DNA of 64,000 nucleotides from Tannerella sp. (GTDB taxonomy: Bacteria > Bacteroidota > Bacteroidia > Bacteroidales > Tannerellaceae): the NCBI GenBank assembly GCA_031285565.1, contig JAITVY010000035.1, positions 202,318-266,317 of the forward strand, in the 5' to 3' direction. The position numbers and the translations under genes were made by a program. The notes beneath the pieces were generated by a model. That model worked only from the letters and a program-made list of their open reading frames with translations. It did not search any database and was not told the origin of the DNA. This document shows, piece after piece, positions 33,621 to 46,749 of the stretch. How positions within the stretch are numbered: position 1 is the first letter of the stretch; each line of letters starts with the position of its first letter.

Positions 33621-35135
33621 ATGAAATTCAATTCGATGGCTAAAAGAAAAAATAAGGTGAGAAATTACGTAAGTGCCGAAGCATATCGACTCTCTCCTGA
33701 ATGGCAGCTATATGTTGCAGCTGTAACTTCTTCGTTGAGCGATAAGTTTTATGAAAAAGCACAGGACCGTGTTGAAGCATTACGCAAATTAATAAAACAA
33801 TGCGATCCGGTATTTGTAGCTCAACTGGCAGTATACACCCGCACGAAAATGAATCTGCGCTCCATACCTTTAGTATTGGCAGTTGAACTGGCAAAAGTAC
33901 ATTGCGGAGACGACCTTGTAAAAAGGATGACTTCACAGGTAATCCGGCGTGCCGATGAAATAACGGAGTTATTGGCTTACTATCAATTGGCAAACGAACG
34001 CGAAAGTATAAAAAAACTAAACCGCTTATCGAAACAGCTCCAAGTGGGGTTACAGGTTGCGTTCAACCAGTTCGATGAATACCAGTTCGCCAAATACAAC
34101 CGGGATACGGAAATAAAACTCCGGGATGCATTGTTTCTGGTTCACCCAAAAGCAAAAGATGAAACACAACAAGTGATATTCAATAAAATTGTGAATAATA
34201 CACTTGAAACTCCATATACTTGGGAAACTGAACTTTCTGCACTCGGAAAGGCACACTATGCTGATGATAACGAACGTTCAATTGCATTCCGCATGAAATG
34301 GGAAGAGCTGGTAGATAGCCAAAAACTCGGTTATATGGCGCTTATCCGTAATCTGCGCAATATACTGGAAGCCCGTGTTTCACAACAATGCATCGCAAAG
34401 GGATGTAATACACTGGCTAATCCTGAAGCAGTCCGCCGGTCAAAACAATTGCCATTCCGTTTTTTGGCAGCTTACCGTGAAATATCAAAAGTAAAATCAG
34501 CCTACGCAGGTCGTATGTTAGATGCATTGGAAGAAGCAGTTACTGTCTCAGCCAGAAGTATAACCGGTTTCGATGAGAATACAAAAGTATTGATTGCTTG
34601 TGATGTTTCAGGATCAATGCAACGTCCCCTATCGCCCAAAAGTAAAATATTATGTTACGACATTGGATTGATGATGGCGATGATTTTAAAATCACGTTGC
34701 AAAAATGCTATAACAGGTATATTTGGGGATAAATGGAAAGTAATAAACGTTCCGAGCAAAAGTATCCTGTCGAACGTAGACACATTATATCATTACGCAA
34801 ATGAAGTGGGTTATTCAACCAATGGCTATTTGGTTATTGAAGATCTTATCCGTCGAAAAGAACTGGTAGATAAAATCATGTTTTTTACCGACTGCCAGCT
34901 ATGGAATAGCCGGAATGACAAAAAGATAGTTGACTTGTGGAATACGTATAAAAAAATATCACCGGACAGCAAGTTATATCTTTTCGATCTGGCCGGATAT
35001 GGTAACACTCCGCTGGATACCAACCGTGAAGATGTGTATCTGATTGCAGGCTGGTCTGATAAAATATTCGACATTATAGCAGCTATCGATAACGGTAGCA
35101 ATGCACTGGGTGAAATAAAGAAAACAGTGCTCTAA
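33621..35135 (+). CDS. rsr: Ro60/TROVE-domain RNA-binding protein with vWA MIDAS (bacterial Rsr-like)
   Basis: HEAT-like TROVE helices, then VLIACDVSGSMQRPLSPKSKI (MIDAS DxSxS) and IMFFTDCQLWN. Confidence 0.92.
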   Translation: MKFNSMAKRKNKVRNYVSAEAYRLSPEWQLYVAAVTSSLSDKFYEKAQDRVEALRKLIKQCDPVFVAQLAVYTRTKMNLRSIPLVLAVELAKVHCGDDLVKRMTSQVIRRADEITELLAYYQLANERESIKKLNRLSKQLQVGLQVAFNQFDEYQFAKYNRDTEIKLRDALFLVHPKAKDETQQVIFNKIVNNTLETPYTWETELSALGKAHYADDNERSIAFRMKWEELVDSQKLGYMALIRNLRNILEARVSQQCIAKGCNTLANPEAVRRSKQLPFRFLAAYREISKVKSAYAGRMLDALEEAVTVSARSITGFDENTKVLIACDVSGSMQRPLSPKSKILCYDIGLMMAMILKSRCKNAITGIFGDKWKVINVPSKSILSNVDTLYHYANEVGYSTNGYLVIEDLIRRKELVDKIMFFTDCQLWNSRNDKKIVDLWNTYKKISPDSKLYLFDLAGYGNTPLDTNREDVYLIAGWSDKIFDIIAAIDNGSNALGEIKKTVL

Positions 35136-35194: not shown

Positions 35195-35346
35195 AAAAAC
35201 AAGTGTCGTAAAGGAAAGATACTTCGCACTTAGGAAGCACTGTCGCAGGTTCGAATCCTGCTACTCCTACAGTTATCAACTAATACAACGGGAGTATCAC
35301 GGTGGGGCAGGAAGAAAAGACTTTCCTTGATTATTACCTTGTTTTT
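35195..35346 (+). ncRNA. Y RNA-like A (permuted tRNA-like module)
   Basis: 9-bp closing stem AAAAACAAG (35195-35203)/CTTGTTTTT (35338-35346); GTA/TAC; AAGGAAAG/CTTTCCTT (35211-35218/35321-35328); T-arm GCAGG-TTCGAAT-CCTGC (35245-35261); acceptor TACTCCT (35262-35268)/GGGAGTA (35290-35296). Confidence 0.85.
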
Positions 35347-35353
35347 AAAATAT

Positions 35354-35614
35354 AAACAAGTGCCGTAGAAAAGAGTTACTTCGCACTCTTAATGCCCGGG
35401 TCGTGGGTTCGAGTCCCACCACTTCCACCAGAAACAAAAAGAGAAAGGTTAAAGTAGAAGACTAAAGAAATAATTTACCTTCATCAATTAGTCTGATATT
35501 GCTGAATGAGGATAAAGTCTTTCACTCTCAATTTTCAATTCTCAATTACTGAAGGGAAGTGTAGCTCAGAGGATAGAGCAGGAATATAGTCTCTTTTCGC
35601 CTGTTGCCTTGTTT
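35354..35614 (+). ncRNA. Y RNA-like B (circularly permuted, near-complete tRNA-like domain with encoded ACCA)
   Basis: AAACAAG/CTTGTTT closing stem; GAAAAGAG/CTCTTTTC; T-arm GTGGG-TTCGAGT-CCCAC (35403-35419); acceptor CACTTCC (35420-35426) + ACCA (35427-35430) pairs with GGAAGTG (35555-35561); TA + D-arm GCTC-AGAGGATA-GAGC (35562-35579). Confidence 0.87.
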
Positions 35615-35621
35615 GCTATAA

Positions 35622-35740
35622 AAACCACATCTGTCGTAAAGGAGAAATACTTCGATTGCTAAAAGCCAAATAAATATGGGTTCAACACCCGGCAAAGTCC
35701 GGGCATGACAAAACATTTCTTTCTGGTCGTTGCCTGTAAT
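35622..35740 (+). ncRNA. Y RNA-like C (minimal T-arm-only module)
   Basis: TGTC-GTA (35632-35638), GGAGAAAT/ATTTCTTT stem, GGTCGT-TGC (35725-35733), TACTTCG, T-hairpin TGGG-TTCAACA-CCCG; closely resembles unit D. Confidence 0.7.
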
Positions 35741-40724: not shown

Positions 40725-41576
40725 TTAATTTTTAATTACTTCAAACGCCCCTATATTCTCCTGCGTCTTACTCCGGTCAAAAACAGCAAACACAATATTC
40801 TTGAATGCACCTGCATATTTACCGTCCTTTGTAAGAAAATACGCAAAATAACGGGCTACATCTTTCGGATCATTCCGGAAAACGCCACAACCCCAGGCTC
40901 CCAGAATCAGCTTATCTACCCCCTGTAACAAAAAGACAGACAATATCTTGTCAAGACGCTCCATCATAACCTTTTCCGATTGTTCAAGTTCATCCTGGCG
41001 TTTATGTTGCATCATTGCACCGATATTTACAGCAGGACTGGTTAAAATATCCATTTCATAAGGTTGCTCCAACAGGATATCGTTATCATCTTTAAAAAAT
41101 ACAACGTCAGGACTATAAATCATATAATCTGAATACAAATAAGTATGCTGCGAACGATTATACTCATACATCTCCGTAAAATACCTCATCTGTGTTGGAT
41201 ACAAAGTCGATGCCCTTGCAAGGCTTTCTTCCTGCGCTTGCGATCCACCCAGAAAACCGCCACCCGGATTTTTTGCTGAAGCAAAATTAAGGCAACCCAC
41301 TCTCCCACCAGTCCCAACTAAATCTGTAGCAGCTTCCATCGAAGTGCAGTTTTTCACTTCGATAATAGTCTCATATTTTTTCTCCTGAAGTAACTTTTCA
41401 ACATCTGATGCTGTATGCTGGAAATAATCAGGTGTATAAAGAACAGTAGCTTCTACCGATTTATCAATCCTGTCCTTCAACTGGATTTCTTTACCTGCAA
41501 CACAATAATACCCTCTCTCAATGATATCTAAAGTCTCCTGGGCATTCTTTGCCCGTATATTTCTATTATTTGTCAT
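40725..41576 (-). CDS. TIGR02452-family microbial PARG-like poly(ADP-ribose) glycohydrolase
   Basis: CLNFASAKNPGGGFLGGSQAQEESLARASTLY (GGG...QEE signature); ILGAWGCGVFRNDP. Confidence 0.9.
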   Translation of the reverse strand: MTNNRNIRAKNAQETLDIIERGYYCVAGKEIQLKDRIDKSVEATVLYTPDYFQHTASDVEKLLQEKKYETIIEVKNCTSMEAATDLVGTGGRVGCLNFASAKNPGGGFLGGSQAQEESLARASTLYPTQMRYFTEMYEYNRSQHTYLYSDYMIYSPDVVFFKDDNDILLEQPYEMDILTSPAVNIGAMMQHKRQDELEQSEKVMMERLDKILSVFLLQGVDKLILGAWGCGVFRNDPKDVARYFAYFLTKDGKYAGAFKNIVFAVFDRSKTQENIGAFEVIKN

Positions 41577-41636
41577 TTCTTTTCTATTGTCGGCACTCCT
41601 TTTGCCATTTTACTAACTTTCTTTAATTGTCCACTG

Positions 41637-42209
41637 TCAATTATCAATTATCCCGTCCAGTCTATCCCTCACCTCCATTAAAGCAAAACCCAATAAGTTT
41701 GACCCTTTCCAAAGCCGGGGATTCTCTGCGTGTTCATGGCTCTGAGCCATCCCAATACCCCAGATACGATCCATTGGACTCGCCTCTACCAGCACCCGGT
41801 CTTTCGTATCCAACAAAAAGGCTTTCAAATCCGGATGCTGGGAGAACTTATGGTAATTGCCTTCACAAACAATATCAAAACAATTTTCTCCCCATACTTT
41901 CGGATCAAAATTCCGTACTTTACGACCCAGCTTTTTTGCTTCAGCAGGAGATTTGGCTACTAATATCTTCTCCAGCATTTCTCTATCACTAAAAAGTACA
42001 GCCTTCTGTGCCATCATCCAATGTTCGGCAGTTGCATAACGTACATGATCGACCTCGAAAGCGCTTTGCCACCATTGGCTAAAGCACGATTTGGAAACCG
42101 AACCATCTTTCGATGGCGTATGCCCCCAAAAAAAGAGATATTTGACATTCTCCTTTTTCTCCTCCCTGCTTAACAACCATCCTAAATTATATGTGTTATA
42201 TTTCATCAT
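41637..42209 (-). CDS. NADAR-family protein (YbiA/DUF1768-like)
   Basis: CFSQWWQSAFEVDHVRYATAEHWMMAQKAVLF; KFSQHPDLKAFLLDT; LVEASPMDRIWGIGM. Confidence 0.92.
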   Translation of the reverse strand: MMKYNTYNLGWLLSREEKKENVKYLFFWGHTPSKDGSVSKSCFSQWWQSAFEVDHVRYATAEHWMMAQKAVLFSDREMLEKILVAKSPAEAKKLGRKVRNFDPKVWGENCFDIVCEGNYHKFSQHPDLKAFLLDTKDRVLVEASPMDRIWGIGMAQSHEHAENPRLWKGSNLLGFALMEVRDRLDGIIDN

Positions 42210-42332
42210 TTCTATTATTAAAAATAGTATATAGTTTGTTGAAATTTTGAATTTTGAATTGCTTAAAATTATCTGCGAAAATCCGCGTTAATCTGCGGTT
42301 CTACCAACTACTCTCTACTAACTACTTAATAA

Positions 42333-43034
42333 TTACAACTCAAAATAAAACCCCGTCTTACTCAACTCCTCATACCGGCTTTTATCAAAACTATACAATT
42401 TAGGAGCCCGGTTACGCGCGCCCCTTTGCACCTCTTTCAAATCAATAAGCAAATCATAACCTAATATTTTCTTCCGGAAATTCCGGTCGTCAAGTTCCGT
42501 TTGTAATACAGTCTCATACAAATGATGCAAATCAGGCATCGTAAACTTCTCCGGCAACAATTCAAACCCTATCGGCTGATATTTTATCTTTCCTTTTAAC
42601 CTGTCTTTTGCCAATTCCAGAATCCGGGCATGATCGAACGCCAGTTCAGGAACATCAGAGATTGAAAACCATTGGATATTAGTTGCATCTGTTCCGGCGT
42701 GCGCATGATAATCCGACAACTTCACTAATGCATAATACGCAATGCTGATTACCCGGTAACGGGGATCACGGTCAACATCTGAGAATGTATATAACTGTTC
42801 CATATAAATATTCTCAAGCCCTGTCTCCTGCACCAGTTTCCGCCTGGCACAGCTCTCCGCATCTTCATCCATATCAATAAAACCACCCGGCAATGCCCAT
42901 TTACCAAGATAGGGTTCGATACCCCTCTCTATCAATAACACCTTCAGTTCACCTTCATCAAAACCGAATATAACACAGTCAGTCGTAACAGCCGGTCTTG
43001 GATATTCATACGTATATTTTCCTTGCAATTCCAT
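42333..43034 (-). CDS. NUDIX-like/winged-helix regulator, NrtR-type
   Basis: N-terminal Nudix GKWALPGGFIDMDEDAESCARRKLVQETGLE plus C-terminal domain NFRKKILGYDLL...GARNRAPKLYSFDKSRY. Confidence 0.85.
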   Translation of the reverse strand: MELQGKYTYEYPRPAVTTDCVIFGFDEGELKVLLIERGIEPYLGKWALPGGFIDMDEDAESCARRKLVQETGLENIYMEQLYTFSDVDRDPRYRVISIAYYALVKLSDYHAHAGTDATNIQWFSISDVPELAFDHARILELAKDRLKGKIKYQPIGFELLPEKFTMPDLHHLYETVLQTELDDRNFRKKILGYDLLIDLKEVQRGARNRAPKLYSFDKSRYEELSKTGFYFEL

Positions 43035-43059
43035 TGTTTTATTTAGTTATTGTAGTTTT

Positions 43060-43120
43060 TACGGGAACAAAGATGAGGACATTTTCTGAAACAACCAAAT
43101 AGTTTGCGTAACAATTACGT
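43060..43120 (-). promoter_or_regulatory. Promoter/operator region of the NrtR-type gene
   Basis: Minus strand ATTGTTACGCAAACTATTTG (43096-43115) then CATCTTTG (43068-43075) and TTCCCGTAAA; near-copy of the SPFH promoter. Confidence 0.55.
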
Positions 43121-43298
43121 ATTCAATATAAAAAAAACGTTTATATACCTAGAAGATAGAAATATATTGTACGATTGTTTAATATACTTTCCAACTCCAT
43201 TCATCTCAAAATAAATATATCCTCATAACCACACCTTTTTACTCTCGCCTTCCACACTCAACAAACAAATAACCTCATAATAGTAAAATAAAACCACC

Positions 43299-43335
43299 CT
43301 GCGCAAAAACAATGCGCAGACACATATTTACTTTG
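43299..43335 (+). promoter_or_regulatory. Operator-like motif CTGCGCAAAAACAATGCGC plus TACTTTG box upstream of Y RNA-like D and the nucleotidyltransferases
   Basis: Motif 43299-43317; GCGCAAA ends 21 nt before TACTTTG (43329-43335). Confidence 0.6.
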
Positions 43336-43372
43336 CATCATCAAACAAAATATCTTTATATGAAGCAATAAT

Positions 43373-43482
43373 ACAAGTGTCGTAAGAAAGAAATACTTCG
43401 ATAGCAAAGCCAAATAAATATGGGTTCGACTCCCAGCTAAGTCCGGGTGGGACAAAGCCTTTCTTTCTGATTGTTACCTTGT
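43373..43482 (+). ncRNA. Y RNA-like D (minimal T-arm-only module) in the 5' leader of the nucleotidyltransferase genes
   Basis: ACAAG (43373-43377)/CTTGT (43478-43482); TGTC; GTA/TAC; AGAAAGAAA (43385-43393)/TTTCTTTCT (43460-43468) 9 bp; T-hairpin TGGG-TTCGACT-CCCA; GTCC-GGGTG-GGAC hairpin. Confidence 0.85.
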
Positions 43483-43547
43483 AAAATTCTTCATAATAAC
43501 TTAAACAAATAAAGCACAAACATCACTCAAAACAAAAACTGACAGGT

Positions 43548-44297
43548 ATGAAAACAATAATAGAAAGAAAACTAACTGAAATAGAACAAACACATGAAAT
43601 AAAAATACTTTATTCATGCGAATCCGGCAGCCGGGCATGGGGTTTTCCATCTCCCGACAGCGATTACGATGTTCGTTTTATATATTTGTATACACTGGAA
43701 GATTACCTGACAATACAACCCAAAAAAGATCATCTGTCTTTCCCGATAAATGACGAACTCGATATATCTGGCTGGGACATATCGAAAGTACTCCAATTGA
43801 TAACAAAATCAAACACAACACCTTTCGAATGGCTGCAATCACCGGTAATATACAGGGAAAATCAGGCTCATAAAGAACAACTATGGCAACTATCCCAAAA
43901 CTATTTTTGTCCGCGAAGCAACATACACCATTATTTAGGCGTTGCACGCGGAGCAATGGAAACAATGCAAGACGAATACATAAAAATAAAAAAACTGTTT
44001 TATGTACTTCGACCGTTGCTTGCAGCCCTGTGGTGTGTAGAACGTGCCTCCATAGCACCGATGAATATACTTCCGTTAATGGATTTATTATCCGGCGATC
44101 TGCAGGAAAAAATAGTATCTTTGATAAATCTGAAAGCGACTGCTACCGAAGGCTACCTGATAAAAATAGATACGGATTTAAAACAATGGATAAACCAAAC
44201 GTTCGATGATTGCTTAAAAGCATCACAACAAATGGGAAGAAAAACTTTTGAGATAGGAAAAGCCGATCAATTATTTAGAGAAATAATACAAGCATAA
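43548..44297 (+). CDS. RlaP/MNT-type nucleotidyltransferase (PF10127-like)
   Basis: YSCESGSRAWGFPSPDSDYDVRFIYLY polymerase-beta-type GSxxWG...DSDxDV motif. Confidence 0.85.
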   Translation: MKTIIERKLTEIEQTHEIKILYSCESGSRAWGFPSPDSDYDVRFIYLYTLEDYLTIQPKKDHLSFPINDELDISGWDISKVLQLITKSNTTPFEWLQSPVIYRENQAHKEQLWQLSQNYFCPRSNIHHYLGVARGAMETMQDEYIKIKKLFYVLRPLLAALWCVERASIAPMNILPLMDLLSGDLQEKIVSLINLKATATEGYLIKIDTDLKQWINQTFDDCLKASQQMGRKTFEIGKADQLFREIIQA

Positions 44298-45361
44298 TGA
44301 CGATACAGGAAATAAAAGAAAAAAGCCTGCTGCTTTTCGAATGCATAAGTGGTAGCAAAGCATATGGGTTAGATACGCCACAATCAGATACAGATCTGAA
44401 AGGAGTCTTCTATCTGCCCAAAGAACAATTCTACGGACTGGACTATATACCACAGGTAAGTAATGAAACCAACGATGAGGTATATTATGAATTAGGGCGT
44501 TTTGTCGAACTACTATGCAAAAACAACCCTAACATACTCGAAGTACTCGCAACACCCGAAGAATGTGTCTTATATAAACACCCCTTAATGGATATGCTTC
44601 ATATAGAAATGTTCTTATCCAAACTATGCAAAGACACTTTTGCCGGGTATGCTCTAACACAGATACGAAAAGCCCGGGGCTACAAAAAGAAAGTGGTAAA
44701 CCCGATGGATAAAGAACGTAAAACGATTCTCGACTTCTGCTATATAATGGACAACAACCTGTCTGTTCCCGTAAAAGAGTGGCTTGATAAAAAAGGCTAT
44801 ACACAGGATTTATGCGGATTAAGCTCCATATCACATGCCAAAGGAATGTATGCCATATTTTATGATGCGGACAACAAATACGATTATCATGGTATAGCTG
44901 CAAAAGAATCTGCAAACGAAGTTTCACTATCATCCATACCAAAAGGAGAAAAACCTATTGGCTATCTATTCTGGAATATGGAAGCATACTCACTTTATTG
45001 CAAAGAATACAAGGAGTACTGGGACTGGGTAGCAGAACGTAACGATGCCCGCTATCAAACCAATATGGAACATGGCAAAAATTACGATTCGAAAAATATG
45101 ATGCACACCATACGCCTCTTGCAGGTTGCCGAAGAAATACTGCGTGACGGCAAACTCAATGTTAAGCGCCCAAACCGGGAACAACTGCTTTCCATAAAAT
45201 CGGGACATATGGATTACAATGACTTATTGGCTATAGCCGACCAACTGATGGAAAAAATAAAAGTATATTGTTTAACATCATCATTACCCGATGCTCCCGA
45301 TAAAAAACAGGCAGAAAGAGTTCTGGTGAAAATAAGGGAAGCATTATATGAATCAAAATAA
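44297..45361 (+). CDS. Second RlaP/MNT-type nucleotidyltransferase (PF10127-like)
   Basis: FECISGSKAYGLDTPQSDTDLKGVF; ATG overlaps the upstream stop (TAATG). Confidence 0.85.
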   Translation: MTIQEIKEKSLLLFECISGSKAYGLDTPQSDTDLKGVFYLPKEQFYGLDYIPQVSNETNDEVYYELGRFVELLCKNNPNILEVLATPEECVLYKHPLMDMLHIEMFLSKLCKDTFAGYALTQIRKARGYKKKVVNPMDKERKTILDFCYIMDNNLSVPVKEWLDKKGYTQDLCGLSSISHAKGMYAIFYDADNKYDYHGIAAKESANEVSLSSIPKGEKPIGYLFWNMEAYSLYCKEYKEYWDWVAERNDARYQTNMEHGKNYDSKNMMHTIRLLQVAEEILRDGKLNVKRPNREQLLSIKSGHMDYNDLLAIADQLMEKIKVYCLTSSLPDAPDKKQAERVLVKIREALYESK

Positions 45362-45375
45362 TAAAATAATTCCCG

Positions 45376-45412
45376 CTACGCAAAAACGTTGCGCTTCGCC
45401 ATAGTTACTTTG
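45376..45412 (+). promoter_or_regulatory. Operator-like motif CTACGCAAAAACGTTGCGC plus TACTTTG box of the rtcB gene
   Basis: Motif 45376-45394; ACGCAAA (45378-45384) ends 21 nt before TACTTTG (45406-45412). Confidence 0.6.
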
Positions 45413-45441
45413 CATCATCAATCAGTAAAAAACGTAAAACA

Positions 45442-46749
45442 ATGATACAATTAAAAGGAAAATACAATCAGGATTGCAAAATATTCATTGACCAGGTCGA
45501 AGCCGAAGCTATCGAATTAGTCAAAAATATTCTTAATCAGGAAATATCCAAAGGAGTACCTGTACGTATTATGCCGGATACACATGTAGGAAAAGGAATC
45601 GTTATTGGGTTTACCATGCCAATGACCAAAATGGTTAATCCAAACTATATCGGAGTTGATATCGGCTGTTCCGTAACAAGCTACCGCTTAAACAAACGTT
45701 TCGATGCTGCCGAACTGCCGCGAATCGATAAAACAATCAGAAAAGCTGTTCCTATGGGTCATGATATCCGGAAAAGCCGTGATTTTAATCATTGGTGGGT
45801 AGACGAATATCTGCAAGCTGCTACACAAAATGTAAACAACTTCCAAAACGAATGGAATATACGCTTTTCCGATAATAAACAAACCATAACAATCGATAGA
45901 GAATATATATCCGGATTATGTCAAAAAGTCGGGATAGAAGAAAGAATGTTTTATAACTCGGTTGGTTCGCTGGGAGGAGGAAACCATTTCATTGAGATTG
46001 GAGAATCGGCAAACGACGGTTCGCATTACCTGACTATACATTCAGGTTCACGAAACTTCGGATTAAAAGTGTGCAATTATCATGCGAAAAAGATGATACC
46101 GGCAAAAAAATTGCCTCAGGAATATTACGATAAGTTTGAGGATATTACCAAAAATACAATCCCCACTACCGATATACCGTCCAGGTTAGCACAACTTAAC
46201 GAAGCATATAAAGTCGGGAAAAAAGAATATATGCTCGAAGACGATGATATGTACAACTACCTGGTAGATATGATAATTGCACAAACTTACGCCGAATTCA
46301 ATCACCGCGCTATGGCACACGCCATATTTGTTGGATTACGCGATGTTGAAGCTACGGATATGGTTCATTCAATGCATAACTTTATCGACACACGCGACTG
46401 GATCATCCGTAAGGGAGCTATCCGCGCCTATAAAAACGAACGAATGATTATCCCGTTCAATATGCGCGACGGACTGTTAATCTGTGAGGGTAAAAGCAAT
46501 GTCGACTGGAACTGTTCGGCTCCGCATGGCGCCGGACGAATACTCGCAAGAAACCAGGCAATGAAAACATTGGATATGACTGAATTTGAAAACGAAATGA
46601 AAGGAATATATTCAACATCCGTTTGCCAGTCAACACTCGATGAGTCACCAATGGCTTATAAAGATAAAGATACAATCATCGAAGCCATCAAAGATACAGC
46701 CACCATCCTCGATACAATAAAACCGGTATTAAATATCAAAGCAAACTGA
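45442..46749 (+). CDS. rtcB: RtcB-family RNA-splicing ligase
   Basis: MPDTHVGKGIVIGFTM; NYIGVDIGCSV; GSLGGGNHFIEIG; HSGSRNFG; SAPHGAGRILAR. Confidence 0.97.
   Translation: MIQLKGKYNQDCKIFIDQVEAEAIELVKNILNQEISKGVPVRIMPDTHVGKGIVIGFTMPMTKMVNPNYIGVDIGCSVTSYRLNKRFDAAELPRIDKTIRKAVPMGHDIRKSRDFNHWWVDEYLQAATQNVNNFQNEWNIRFSDNKQTITIDREYISGLCQKVGIEERMFYNSVGSLGGGNHFIEIGESANDGSHYLTIHSGSRNFGLKVCNYHAKKMIPAKKLPQEYYDKFEDITKNTIPTTDIPSRLAQLNEAYKVGKKEYMLEDDDMYNYLVDMIIAQTYAEFNHRAMAHAIFVGLRDVEATDMVHSMHNFIDTRDWIIRKGAIRAYKNERMIIPFNMRDGLLICEGKSNVDWNCSAPHGAGRILARNQAMKTLDMTEFENEMKGIYSTSVCQSTLDESPMAYKDKDTIIEAIKDTATILDTIKPVLNIKAN

What the first reader, a model, noticed from the sequence alone, without database searches (positions are those of the whole stretch)
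35354..35614. Y RNA-like B contains a circularly permuted, almost intact tRNA with an encoded ACCA
In order: CGCA-CTCTTAA-TGC (looks like a 3-bp remnant of a Lys-CUU-type anticodon arm), T-arm GTGGG-TTCGAGT-CCCAC, acceptor 3' strand CACTTCC + ACCA, a 124-nt spacer, acceptor 5' strand GGAAGTG (perfect 7 bp), TA (positions 8-9), D-arm GCTC-AGAGGATA-GAGC, then the Ro-binding-type stem. The tRNA halves are inverted in order and the anticodon stem is replaced by the Y stem. Tertiary hallmarks (D-loop GG, T-loop TTCGAGT) are retained. Published YrlA RNAs also mimic tRNA; a complete acceptor with ACCA next to a long excisable spacer seems unusual.
Basis: partly seen in the sequence, partly recalled or inferred. 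Interest (0 to 1): 0.92.

Follow-up and report, generated by a model that had tools for sequence, protein, structure and literature searches.

The report
Tandem Y RNA carrying permuted tRNA
Downstream of a bacterial Ro60 gene lies a small RNA that carries a tRNA cut open and re-ordered; this layout is already known for bacterial Y RNAs, but here the amino-acid end looks like a genuine, processable tRNA end, as if the RNA were trimmed into a two-piece tRNA look-alike.

Summary
Next to a Ro60/TROVE gene, Y RNA "B" (35354-35614) holds, in order, a T-arm, acceptor 3' strand, ACCA, 124-nt spacer, acceptor 5' strand, UA and D-arm, all inside a Ro-type stem. Chance does not give this (0 of 20,000 local shuffles). 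Relatives keep the acceptor helix, the 15:48 tertiary pair and a two-pair anticodon-stem stub by covariation. The permuted order itself is not new: it is the architecture of YrlA, the tRNA-mimicking bacterial Y RNA (Rfam RF02553; PDB 6CU1). Less ordinary is an "open-acceptor" subclass. Among 68 Bacteroidota YrlA-like RNAs, those with spacers of 15 nt or more start N73-C74 (24/28), as real tRNA genes there do (C74 81/82, full CCA 10/82); shorter-looped ones mostly do not (11/40; p=2e-6). In alphaproteobacterial plasmids, where sampled tRNA genes encode CCA, nine YrlAs carry NCCA with CCA invariant. I infer that tRNA-end enzymes cut out the spacer, leaving a two-piece, CCA-ended Y RNA, as in permuted tmRNA. 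Processing is untested, and the primary YrlA papers could not be read, so prior description is possible.

The parts
33621..35135 (+). Ro60/TROVE-domain protein (Rsr ortholog), 504 aa
   Evidence: Pfam TROVE 7e-30 and Ro60 vWA 2e-7; relatives across Bacteroidota
35195..35346 (+). Y RNA A: Ro-type stem AAAAACAAG/CTTGTTTTT and AAGGAAAG/CTTTCCTT; T-arm 35245-35261, acceptor 3' strand TACTCCT 35262-35268, 21-nt spacer starting ACA 35269-35289, acceptor 5' strand GGGAGTA 35290-35296 (7 pairs), degenerate D-arm
   Evidence: sequence, fold (z -2.4), coordinates, weak YrlA match 16.7 bits
35354..35614 (+). Y RNA B, the finding: YrlA-type Y RNA with a permuted tRNA domain and a long insert in the acceptor loop
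35354..35375 (+). 5' strand of the Ro-type stem (AAACAAG 35354-35360, internal loop with GCCGTA, GAAAAGAG 35368-35375)
   Evidence: pairs with 35591-35614; found unprompted in the minimum-energy fold; inner helix differs in both strands from that of Y RNA A
35386..35402 (+). tRNA positions 32-48: anticodon-loop-like CTCTTAA (35386-35392), anticodon-stem 3' strand (35393-35397), variable loop GGGTC (35398-35402)
   Evidence: pairs 27-43 and 28-42 in 97% and 91% of 68 relatives (shuffled 43% and 53%); R15:Y48 as G-C in 59 and A-U in 6
35403..35419 (+). T-arm GTGGG-TTCGAGT-CCCAC
   Evidence: compensatory T-A to C-G change (pair 50:64) in the own-genome paralog
35420..35426 (+). acceptor 3' strand CACTTCC
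35427..35430 (+). A73-C74-C75-A76 (encoded ACCA)
   Evidence: C74 in 24/28 open relatives and 81/82 tRNA genes
35431..35554 (+). 124-nt spacer in the acceptor loop, presumed removed; 35518-35548 is a dispersed genomic repeat
   Evidence: about 40 partial copies in the genome; not conserved in the paralog
35555..35561 (+). acceptor 5' strand GGAAGTG (G1-C72)
35562..35579 (+). U8-A9 and D-arm GCTC-AGAGGATA-GAGC
35591..35614 (+). 3' strand of the Ro-type stem (CTCTTTTC 35591-35598, CTTGTTT 35608-35614)
35620..35735 (+). Y RNA C (approximate): GTCGTAAAGGAGAAATACTTCG motif, GGG-TTCAACA-CCC hairpin, no clear acceptor or D-arm
   Evidence: sequence only
43548..46749 (+). RNA-repair genes: two RlaP-type nucleotidyltransferases (43548-44297, 44297-45361) and RtcB ligase (45442-46749)
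   Evidence: Pfam RlaP 1e-72 and 1e-23, RtcB 5e-58

Best explanation
Y RNA B is a Bacteroidota YrlA-type Y RNA. Its stem is bound by the adjacent Ro60/Rsr protein, and its outer end is a circularly permuted tRNA body (3' half first, then 5' half), in which the anticodon arm is replaced by the Ro-binding stem. It belongs to an open-acceptor subclass. The loop closing the acceptor helix begins like a genuine tRNA 3' end (N73-C74, here ACCA) and ends at a G1 that pairs with C72. Most likely the RNA is transcribed whole, and the tRNA-end enzymes then cut the spacer out: RNase P before G35555, and tRNase Z and/or exonucleases after A73 or CCA, with the CCA-adding enzyme completing CCA where it is not encoded. 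The product would be a two-piece tRNA mimic with a free CCA end, held together by the acceptor helix and the Ro stem. Shown here: anatomy, covariation, the lineage-matched 3'-end signature, neighbouring Ro60 and RNA-repair genes, and tRNase Z and a CCA-adding-type enzyme in the genome. Inferred: Ro binding, cleavage, CCA completion, and any use of the end, for example to present a tRNA-like end to PNPase, CCA enzymes or repair enzymes, or to act as a decoy for tRNA-damaging nucleases.
For: Anatomy and chance. The minimum-energy fold finds the Ro stem, T-arm and acceptor unprompted; without the spacer, z = -2.2. Acceptor pairing, tested without requiring it: 6.53/7 against 4.06 shuffled, maximum 4.8 in 2,000 shuffles, several pair types per position. 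Tertiary and stub covariation. YrlA model below its cut-off but significant: L003 42.7 bits E 3e-6, L002 34.7 bits E 6e-4, own paralog L185 31.1 bits E 6e-3. tRNA genes have C74 in 81/82 and full CCA in 10/82. Open Y RNAs: C74 24/28, G1-C72 22/28; shorter-looped: 11/40 and 9/40; Fisher p 2e-6 for C74. Open and short-looped forms switch about 13 times on the Ro tree, and in independent pairs AC follows openness about 5 to 0.2. Nine alphaproteobacterial YrlAs carry N-CCA with N varying and CCA fixed; tRNA genes on such plasmids encode CCA 5/5. The own-genome paralog has an 85-nt spacer of unrelated sequence with a conserved body, as expected for a discarded piece. tRNase Z and a CCA-adding/poly(A)-polymerase-family gene are present. 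The same logic is established for two-piece tmRNA (PMC11915505) and for permuted algal tRNAs (PMC3978253).
Against: No transcript data exist here, so cleavage is inferred. Most relatives are short-looped and presumably work without open ends, so an open end is not needed for a Y RNA. Four of 28 open forms lack C74, among them L147, close kin of the window. The independent-pair test is small (median p 0.06 for AC, 0.125 for C74). The 15-nt boundary was chosen after seeing the data. A73-C74 could be a relic of tRNA ancestry. The nine alphaproteobacterial copies are mostly close relatives. The spacer contains a dispersed repeat, so it may be a recent insertion in a tolerant loop.
Confidence: 0.55

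Rival explanations
1. Ordinary one-piece YrlA with a tolerated loop insertion: the 124 nt stays in the mature RNA as a large loop, and ACCA is a relic or chance.
For: Loop length is free in relatives, from 3 nt upward; the closest kin include a 3-nt cap (L003) and a non-tRNA-like 17-nt loop (L147); the spacer holds a dispersed repeat; full CCA occurs in only 1 of 28 Bacteroidota open forms.
Against: C74 and G1-C72 track openness; CCA is invariant in alphaproteobacterial YrlAs while N73 and the following bases vary; a standing relic should not switch with cap type about 13 times.
Confidence: 0.33
2. Decaying Y RNA: Y RNA B is a pseudogene broken by an insertion, with Y RNA A or C doing the work.
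For: It carries the longest insert in the sample, and neighbouring Y RNAs exist.
Against: All tRNA-core and Ro-stem elements are intact, and the paralog shows a compensatory difference in T-stem pair 50:64 while the spacer is unconserved.
Confidence: 0.09
3. A permuted gene for a working tRNA used in translation.
For: Intact acceptor, T-arm and D-arm, and an anticodon-loop-like CTCTTAA.
Against: The anticodon arm is not closed (only two stub pairs) and is replaced by the Ro stem; the loop sequence is not conserved in relatives; Lys tRNAs are encoded elsewhere in the genome.
Confidence: 0.01
4. A permuted tmRNA.
For: Weak match to RF04321, E 0.016, through T-arm, acceptor, CCA and spacer.
Against: The match covers 60 of 213 model positions; there is a Ro stem, Ro60 next door and better YrlA matches in relatives; no tag reading frame was recognised.
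Confidence: 0.01

Closest known systems
YrlA bacterial Y RNA (Rfam RF02553; Salmonella YrlA, PDB 6CU1)
   Same: Ro60-gene neighbour; 5' and 3' ends form a Ro-type stem; order T-arm, acceptor hairpin, UA, D-arm, anticodon-stem stub; circular permutation relative to tRNA
   Different: The Rfam consensus has a short capped acceptor; here the acceptor loop is 128 nt and begins with ACCA; scores lie below the family cut-off
Rhizobium/Shinella/Novosphingobium plasmid YrlA (L246, L250-L256, L258)
   Same: Permuted tRNA with NCCA directly after the acceptor 3' strand; eight of the nine lie just downstream of an annotated TROVE or 'RNA-binding protein' gene (the ninth record is unannotated), and L246 is also followed by an rtcB gene
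   Different: Only 5-8 nt between CCA and G1; different phylum; Y-stem sequence differs
Permuted (two-piece) tmRNA, RF04321
   Same: Acceptor 3' half with CCA position first, then an intervening sequence removed by tRNA-processing enzymes, then the 5' half (PMC11915505)
   Different: Has a tag reading frame and no Ro stem; mature two-piece form established there, only inferred here
Circularly permuted tRNA genes of red and green algae
   Different: Those pass through a circular RNA and become translating tRNAs; here the other junction is permanently occupied by the Ro stem

Membership tests
YrlA-type bacterial Y RNA | Encoded next to a Ro60/Rsr (TROVE) gene | tested here: met
   Starts about 220 bases downstream of a TROVE protein gene
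YrlA-type bacterial Y RNA | 5' and 3' ends pair into a stem with the Ro-binding internal loop | tested here: met
   Two helices around an internal loop in the fold; Y RNAs A and B differ in both strands of the inner helix. Ro binding itself was not tested
YrlA-type bacterial Y RNA | Permuted tRNA-like domain (T-arm, acceptor, D-arm) with tRNA core contacts | tested here: met
   R15:Y48 and stub pairs covary in relatives
YrlA-type bacterial Y RNA | Match to Rfam RF02553 at its curated cut-off (69 bits) | tested here: not met
   B itself is not listed up to E 10, A scores 16.7 bits; relatives score 31-48 bits, significant but below cut-off. Rhizobium YrlA at 56 bits also misses it, so the cut-off is strict
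YrlA-type bacterial Y RNA | Bound by Rsr/Ro60; tethers PNPase; modified by DusA and TruB | not testable with these tools
   Reported for other YrlA RNAs (PMC8394870)
Two-piece (permuted) tRNA-like RNA | Intervening sequence removed from the transcript, giving a 5'-phosphate G1 and a CCA 3' end | not testable with these tools
   Indirect support only
Permuted tmRNA | RF04321 cut-off (47 bits) and tag reading frame | tested here: not met
   22.8 bits over 60 of 213 positions
Functional tRNA | Closed anticodon arm recognised by ARAGORN or the Rfam tRNA model | tested here: not met
   No ARAGORN hit and no Rfam tRNA match for B

The most novel reading that the evidence does not exclude
Open-acceptor Y RNAs form a widespread class of two-piece, CCA-ended tRNA mimics made by tRNA-end enzymes. 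In lineages whose acceptor carries G3:U70 (10 of 28 open forms, 2 of 40 shorter-looped, 3 of 94 non-Ala tRNAs), including the second copy in this genome, they are alanylated like tmRNA. The Ro60 particle would then carry a chargeable tRNA end and could sense tRNA or CCA integrity in the RNA-repair locus. Y RNA B itself has A3-U70, so charging is not claimed for it.
Probability: 0.1. Interest if true: 0.9.

Novelty: new variant of a known kind. Interest (0 to 1): 0.55.

Why it matters
If the spacer is cut out, some bacterial Y RNAs would have to be redrawn as processed, two-piece tRNA mimics with a free CCA end, helping to explain why they imitate tRNA so closely and linking the Ro60 particle to tRNA maturation and repair. 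The prediction is sharp: two ends at named bases, checkable in a single RNA-seq experiment. If it is wrong, the site is an ordinary YrlA with a long loop.

Tried and rejected
Chen 2014 (RNA), Wang 2018 (Structure) and the Sim and Wolin review are not in the library, so what they say about ends and RNase P could not be checked. Rfam at gathering level finds nothing in the window. Tandem ordinary tRNAs that mimic a permuted hit (L137, L138, L046, L171) were removed by ARAGORN masking or by hand. The 203-nt hit in L139 was dropped because its real partner strand lies 2 nt away. The spacer as a mobile element: only its 3' 30 bases are repeated in the genome, the rest is unique. No lysine-anticodon ancestry as a family trait: loop sequences vary. 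Whole-RNA folding with the spacer is not better than shuffles (z -0.66), so I do not use its energy as evidence. The viral-contig scan gave a single distant Ro60. The G1-C72 association is weak once relatedness is counted.

Full report
What is there. The window lies in a Tannerellaceae-like Bacteroidales genome (own genome G000, contig 50; nearest Ro60 relatives are Tannerellaceae, Dysgonomonas and Bacteroides sp. 51, 75-78% identical). A Ro60/TROVE gene (33621-35135) is followed by three Y RNA-like units: A (35195-35346), B (35354-35614) and, less clearly, C (about 35620-35735). Further on come PARG, NADAR and Nudix/NrtR genes, two RlaP nucleotidyltransferases and RtcB, an RNA-repair neighbourhood.

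Observation. Strict permuted-tRNA scans of 60 shuffled windows gave none, and 20,000 local shuffles gave none. The minimum-energy fold of B returns the Ro-type stem, the T-arm and the acceptor without being told.

Is the acceptor conserved? RNAs were first picked by Y motif, T-arm and D-arm without asking for acceptor pairing. Thirty such RNAs had a mean of 6.53 of 7 acceptor pairs, against 4.06 (maximum 4.8) when partners were shuffled, with several pair types at each position. In a set of 68, positions that had not been imposed also behave like tRNA: R15:Y48 is G-C in 59 and A-U in 6, and the anticodon-stem stub pairs 27-43 and 28-42 form in 97% and 91% (shuffled 43% and 53%). The tRNA-like core is therefore selected.

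Is the permutation new? No. The Rfam YrlA consensus has the same order: Y stem, T-arm, capped acceptor hairpin, UA and D-arm, stub, Y stem. A published structural comparison describes Salmonella YrlA (6CU1) as circularly permuted relative to tRNA (PMC11472068). Bacteroidota relatives match the YrlA model significantly though below its cut-off. I file B as a YrlA-type Y RNA on architecture and context, noting that the Rfam cut-off is not met.

What differs: the open acceptor. In many YrlAs the acceptor ends in a short cap. In the Bacteroidota set the loop ranges from 3 to 128 nt. Open loops (15 nt or more, n=28) begin with N73-C74 in 24 and are closed by G1-C72 in 22. Shorter loops (n=40) do so in 11 and 9 (C74: Fisher p 2e-6). 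By length, C74 occurs in 6/20 (up to 8 nt), 5/20 (9-14 nt) and 24/28 (15 nt and more). Real tRNA genes in the same loci have C74 in 81 of 82 but a complete CCA in only 10 of 82. So N73-C74 is what a tRNA 3' end looks like in these genomes, and open Y RNAs carry it. On a Ro60 tree open and short-looped forms interchange about 13 times, and AC goes with openness in about 5 independent pairs against 0.2, which is suggestive only (median p 0.06).

A second lineage fits the same rule. YrlAs on Rhizobium, Shinella and Novosphingobium plasmids read acceptor-N-CCA-(5 to 8 nt)-acceptor, where N is T, C or A and CCA is the same in all nine complete copies (most are close relatives). The five tRNA genes found on two of these plasmids all encode CCA. 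Thus each lineage's Y RNA copies its own lineage's tRNA 3'-end code. B's complete ACCA is a minority state in Bacteroidota and may be partly chance, but its C74 is not.

The spacer. A second copy of the B-type RNA lies about 144 kb away in the same contig, with no Ro60 gene among the neighbouring reading frames (L185 8471). Its body is 72/84 and 60/81 identical to B, with a compensatory change in T-stem pair 50:64, while its 85-nt spacer is essentially unrelated. The 3' end of B's spacer is a dispersed repeat of about 30 bases. A part that varies freely in length and sequence between conserved halves is what one expects of a discarded segment, but also of a tolerated loop.

How it most likely works. 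The transcript folds with the Ro stem at one end and the tRNA body at the other. RNase P would cut before G35555. tRNase Z or exonucleases would cut on the other side, and CCA would be encoded or completed. tRNase Z and a CCA-adding-type gene are in the genome; both are housekeeping genes. The product would be a two-piece RNA with a free CCA end, as for permuted tmRNA (PMC11915505) and as proposed for the acceptor loop of permuted algal tRNAs (PMC3978253). Shown: anatomy, covariation, end signature. Inferred: Ro binding, cleavage, CCA completion and role. Published roles of other bacterial Y RNAs are tethering PNPase to Rsr and, for YrlA, being modified by DusA and TruB (PMC8394870); a decoy role for a tRNA nuclease has been suggested (PMC7790460).

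An extra thread. G:U wobbles with G in the 5' strand sit mostly at position 3:70 in open forms (10 of 28 RNAs) but not in shorter-looped forms (2 of 40) or non-alanine tRNAs (3 of 94). G3:U70 is the alanine identity element of tRNA and tmRNA (established knowledge). Seven of the ten come from one Flavobacterium-like genus, so independence is limited, and B has A3-U70. I offer this only as a testable lead.

Verdict. Real and functional-looking; a new variant (open acceptor) of a known kind (YrlA). The permuted tRNA alone is not news. The lineage-matched tRNA-end signature and the implied two-piece RNA would be, unless the YrlA papers that I could not read already say so.

Noticed in passing
L005, L008, L017, L046, L171, L248, L249: Arrays of ordinary tRNA genes (7 to 12 in L005, L008 and L017) flank Ro60/YrlA loci in several Bacteroidota, a Bifidobacterium plasmid and a haloarchaeal plasmid, suggesting spare-tRNA sets linked to Ro60 and RNA-repair loci.
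   Followed up: no
L003 7600-7725, L004 8885-9010, L002 2950-3035, L185 8620-8780, L001 7640-7760: A second conserved Y RNA type with a core GGGGAGGAATAG...CTATCCGGTTCGACTCCGGCAATG...CCCC: a T-arm-like hairpin inside a different fold, also present in the own genome beside the second YrlA copy.
   Followed up: no
own-genome tRNA genes (L082-L111) and other Bacteroidota loci: tRNA genes encode N73 and C74 almost without exception (81/82) but a complete CCA in only 10/82; why C74 alone is kept is unexplained.
   Followed up: partly
35518-35548 and about 40 other places in the genome: A dispersed repeat of about 30 bases, TCTCAATTTTCAATTCTCAATT, sits in the 3' part of the B spacer and also in the spacer of the second YrlA copy.
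   Followed up: partly
L260 4001-4061 (Nocardia farcinica plasmid pNF2): A permuted tRNA-like element, acceptor-ACCA-CGA-acceptor-D-arm, with no annotated TROVE gene within 4 kb.
   Followed up: no
L184 around 1757-1800 (own genome, orphan YrlA locus): A lone tRNA 5' half (CCCTTGTAGCTTAAAAGGACAAAGC) follows the second Y RNA of the orphan locus.
   Followed up: no
40725-46749: PARG, NADAR and Nudix/NrtR genes next to two RlaP nucleotidyltransferases and RtcB: ADP-ribose/NAD and RNA-repair genes clustered near Ro60.
   Followed up: partly
phage records H75-H84: Aeromonas and Mycobacterium phages hold sequence resembling the tRNA 3' half of B, some annotated as odd tRNAs such as tRNA-Pyl or tRNA-OTHER.
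   Followed up: no
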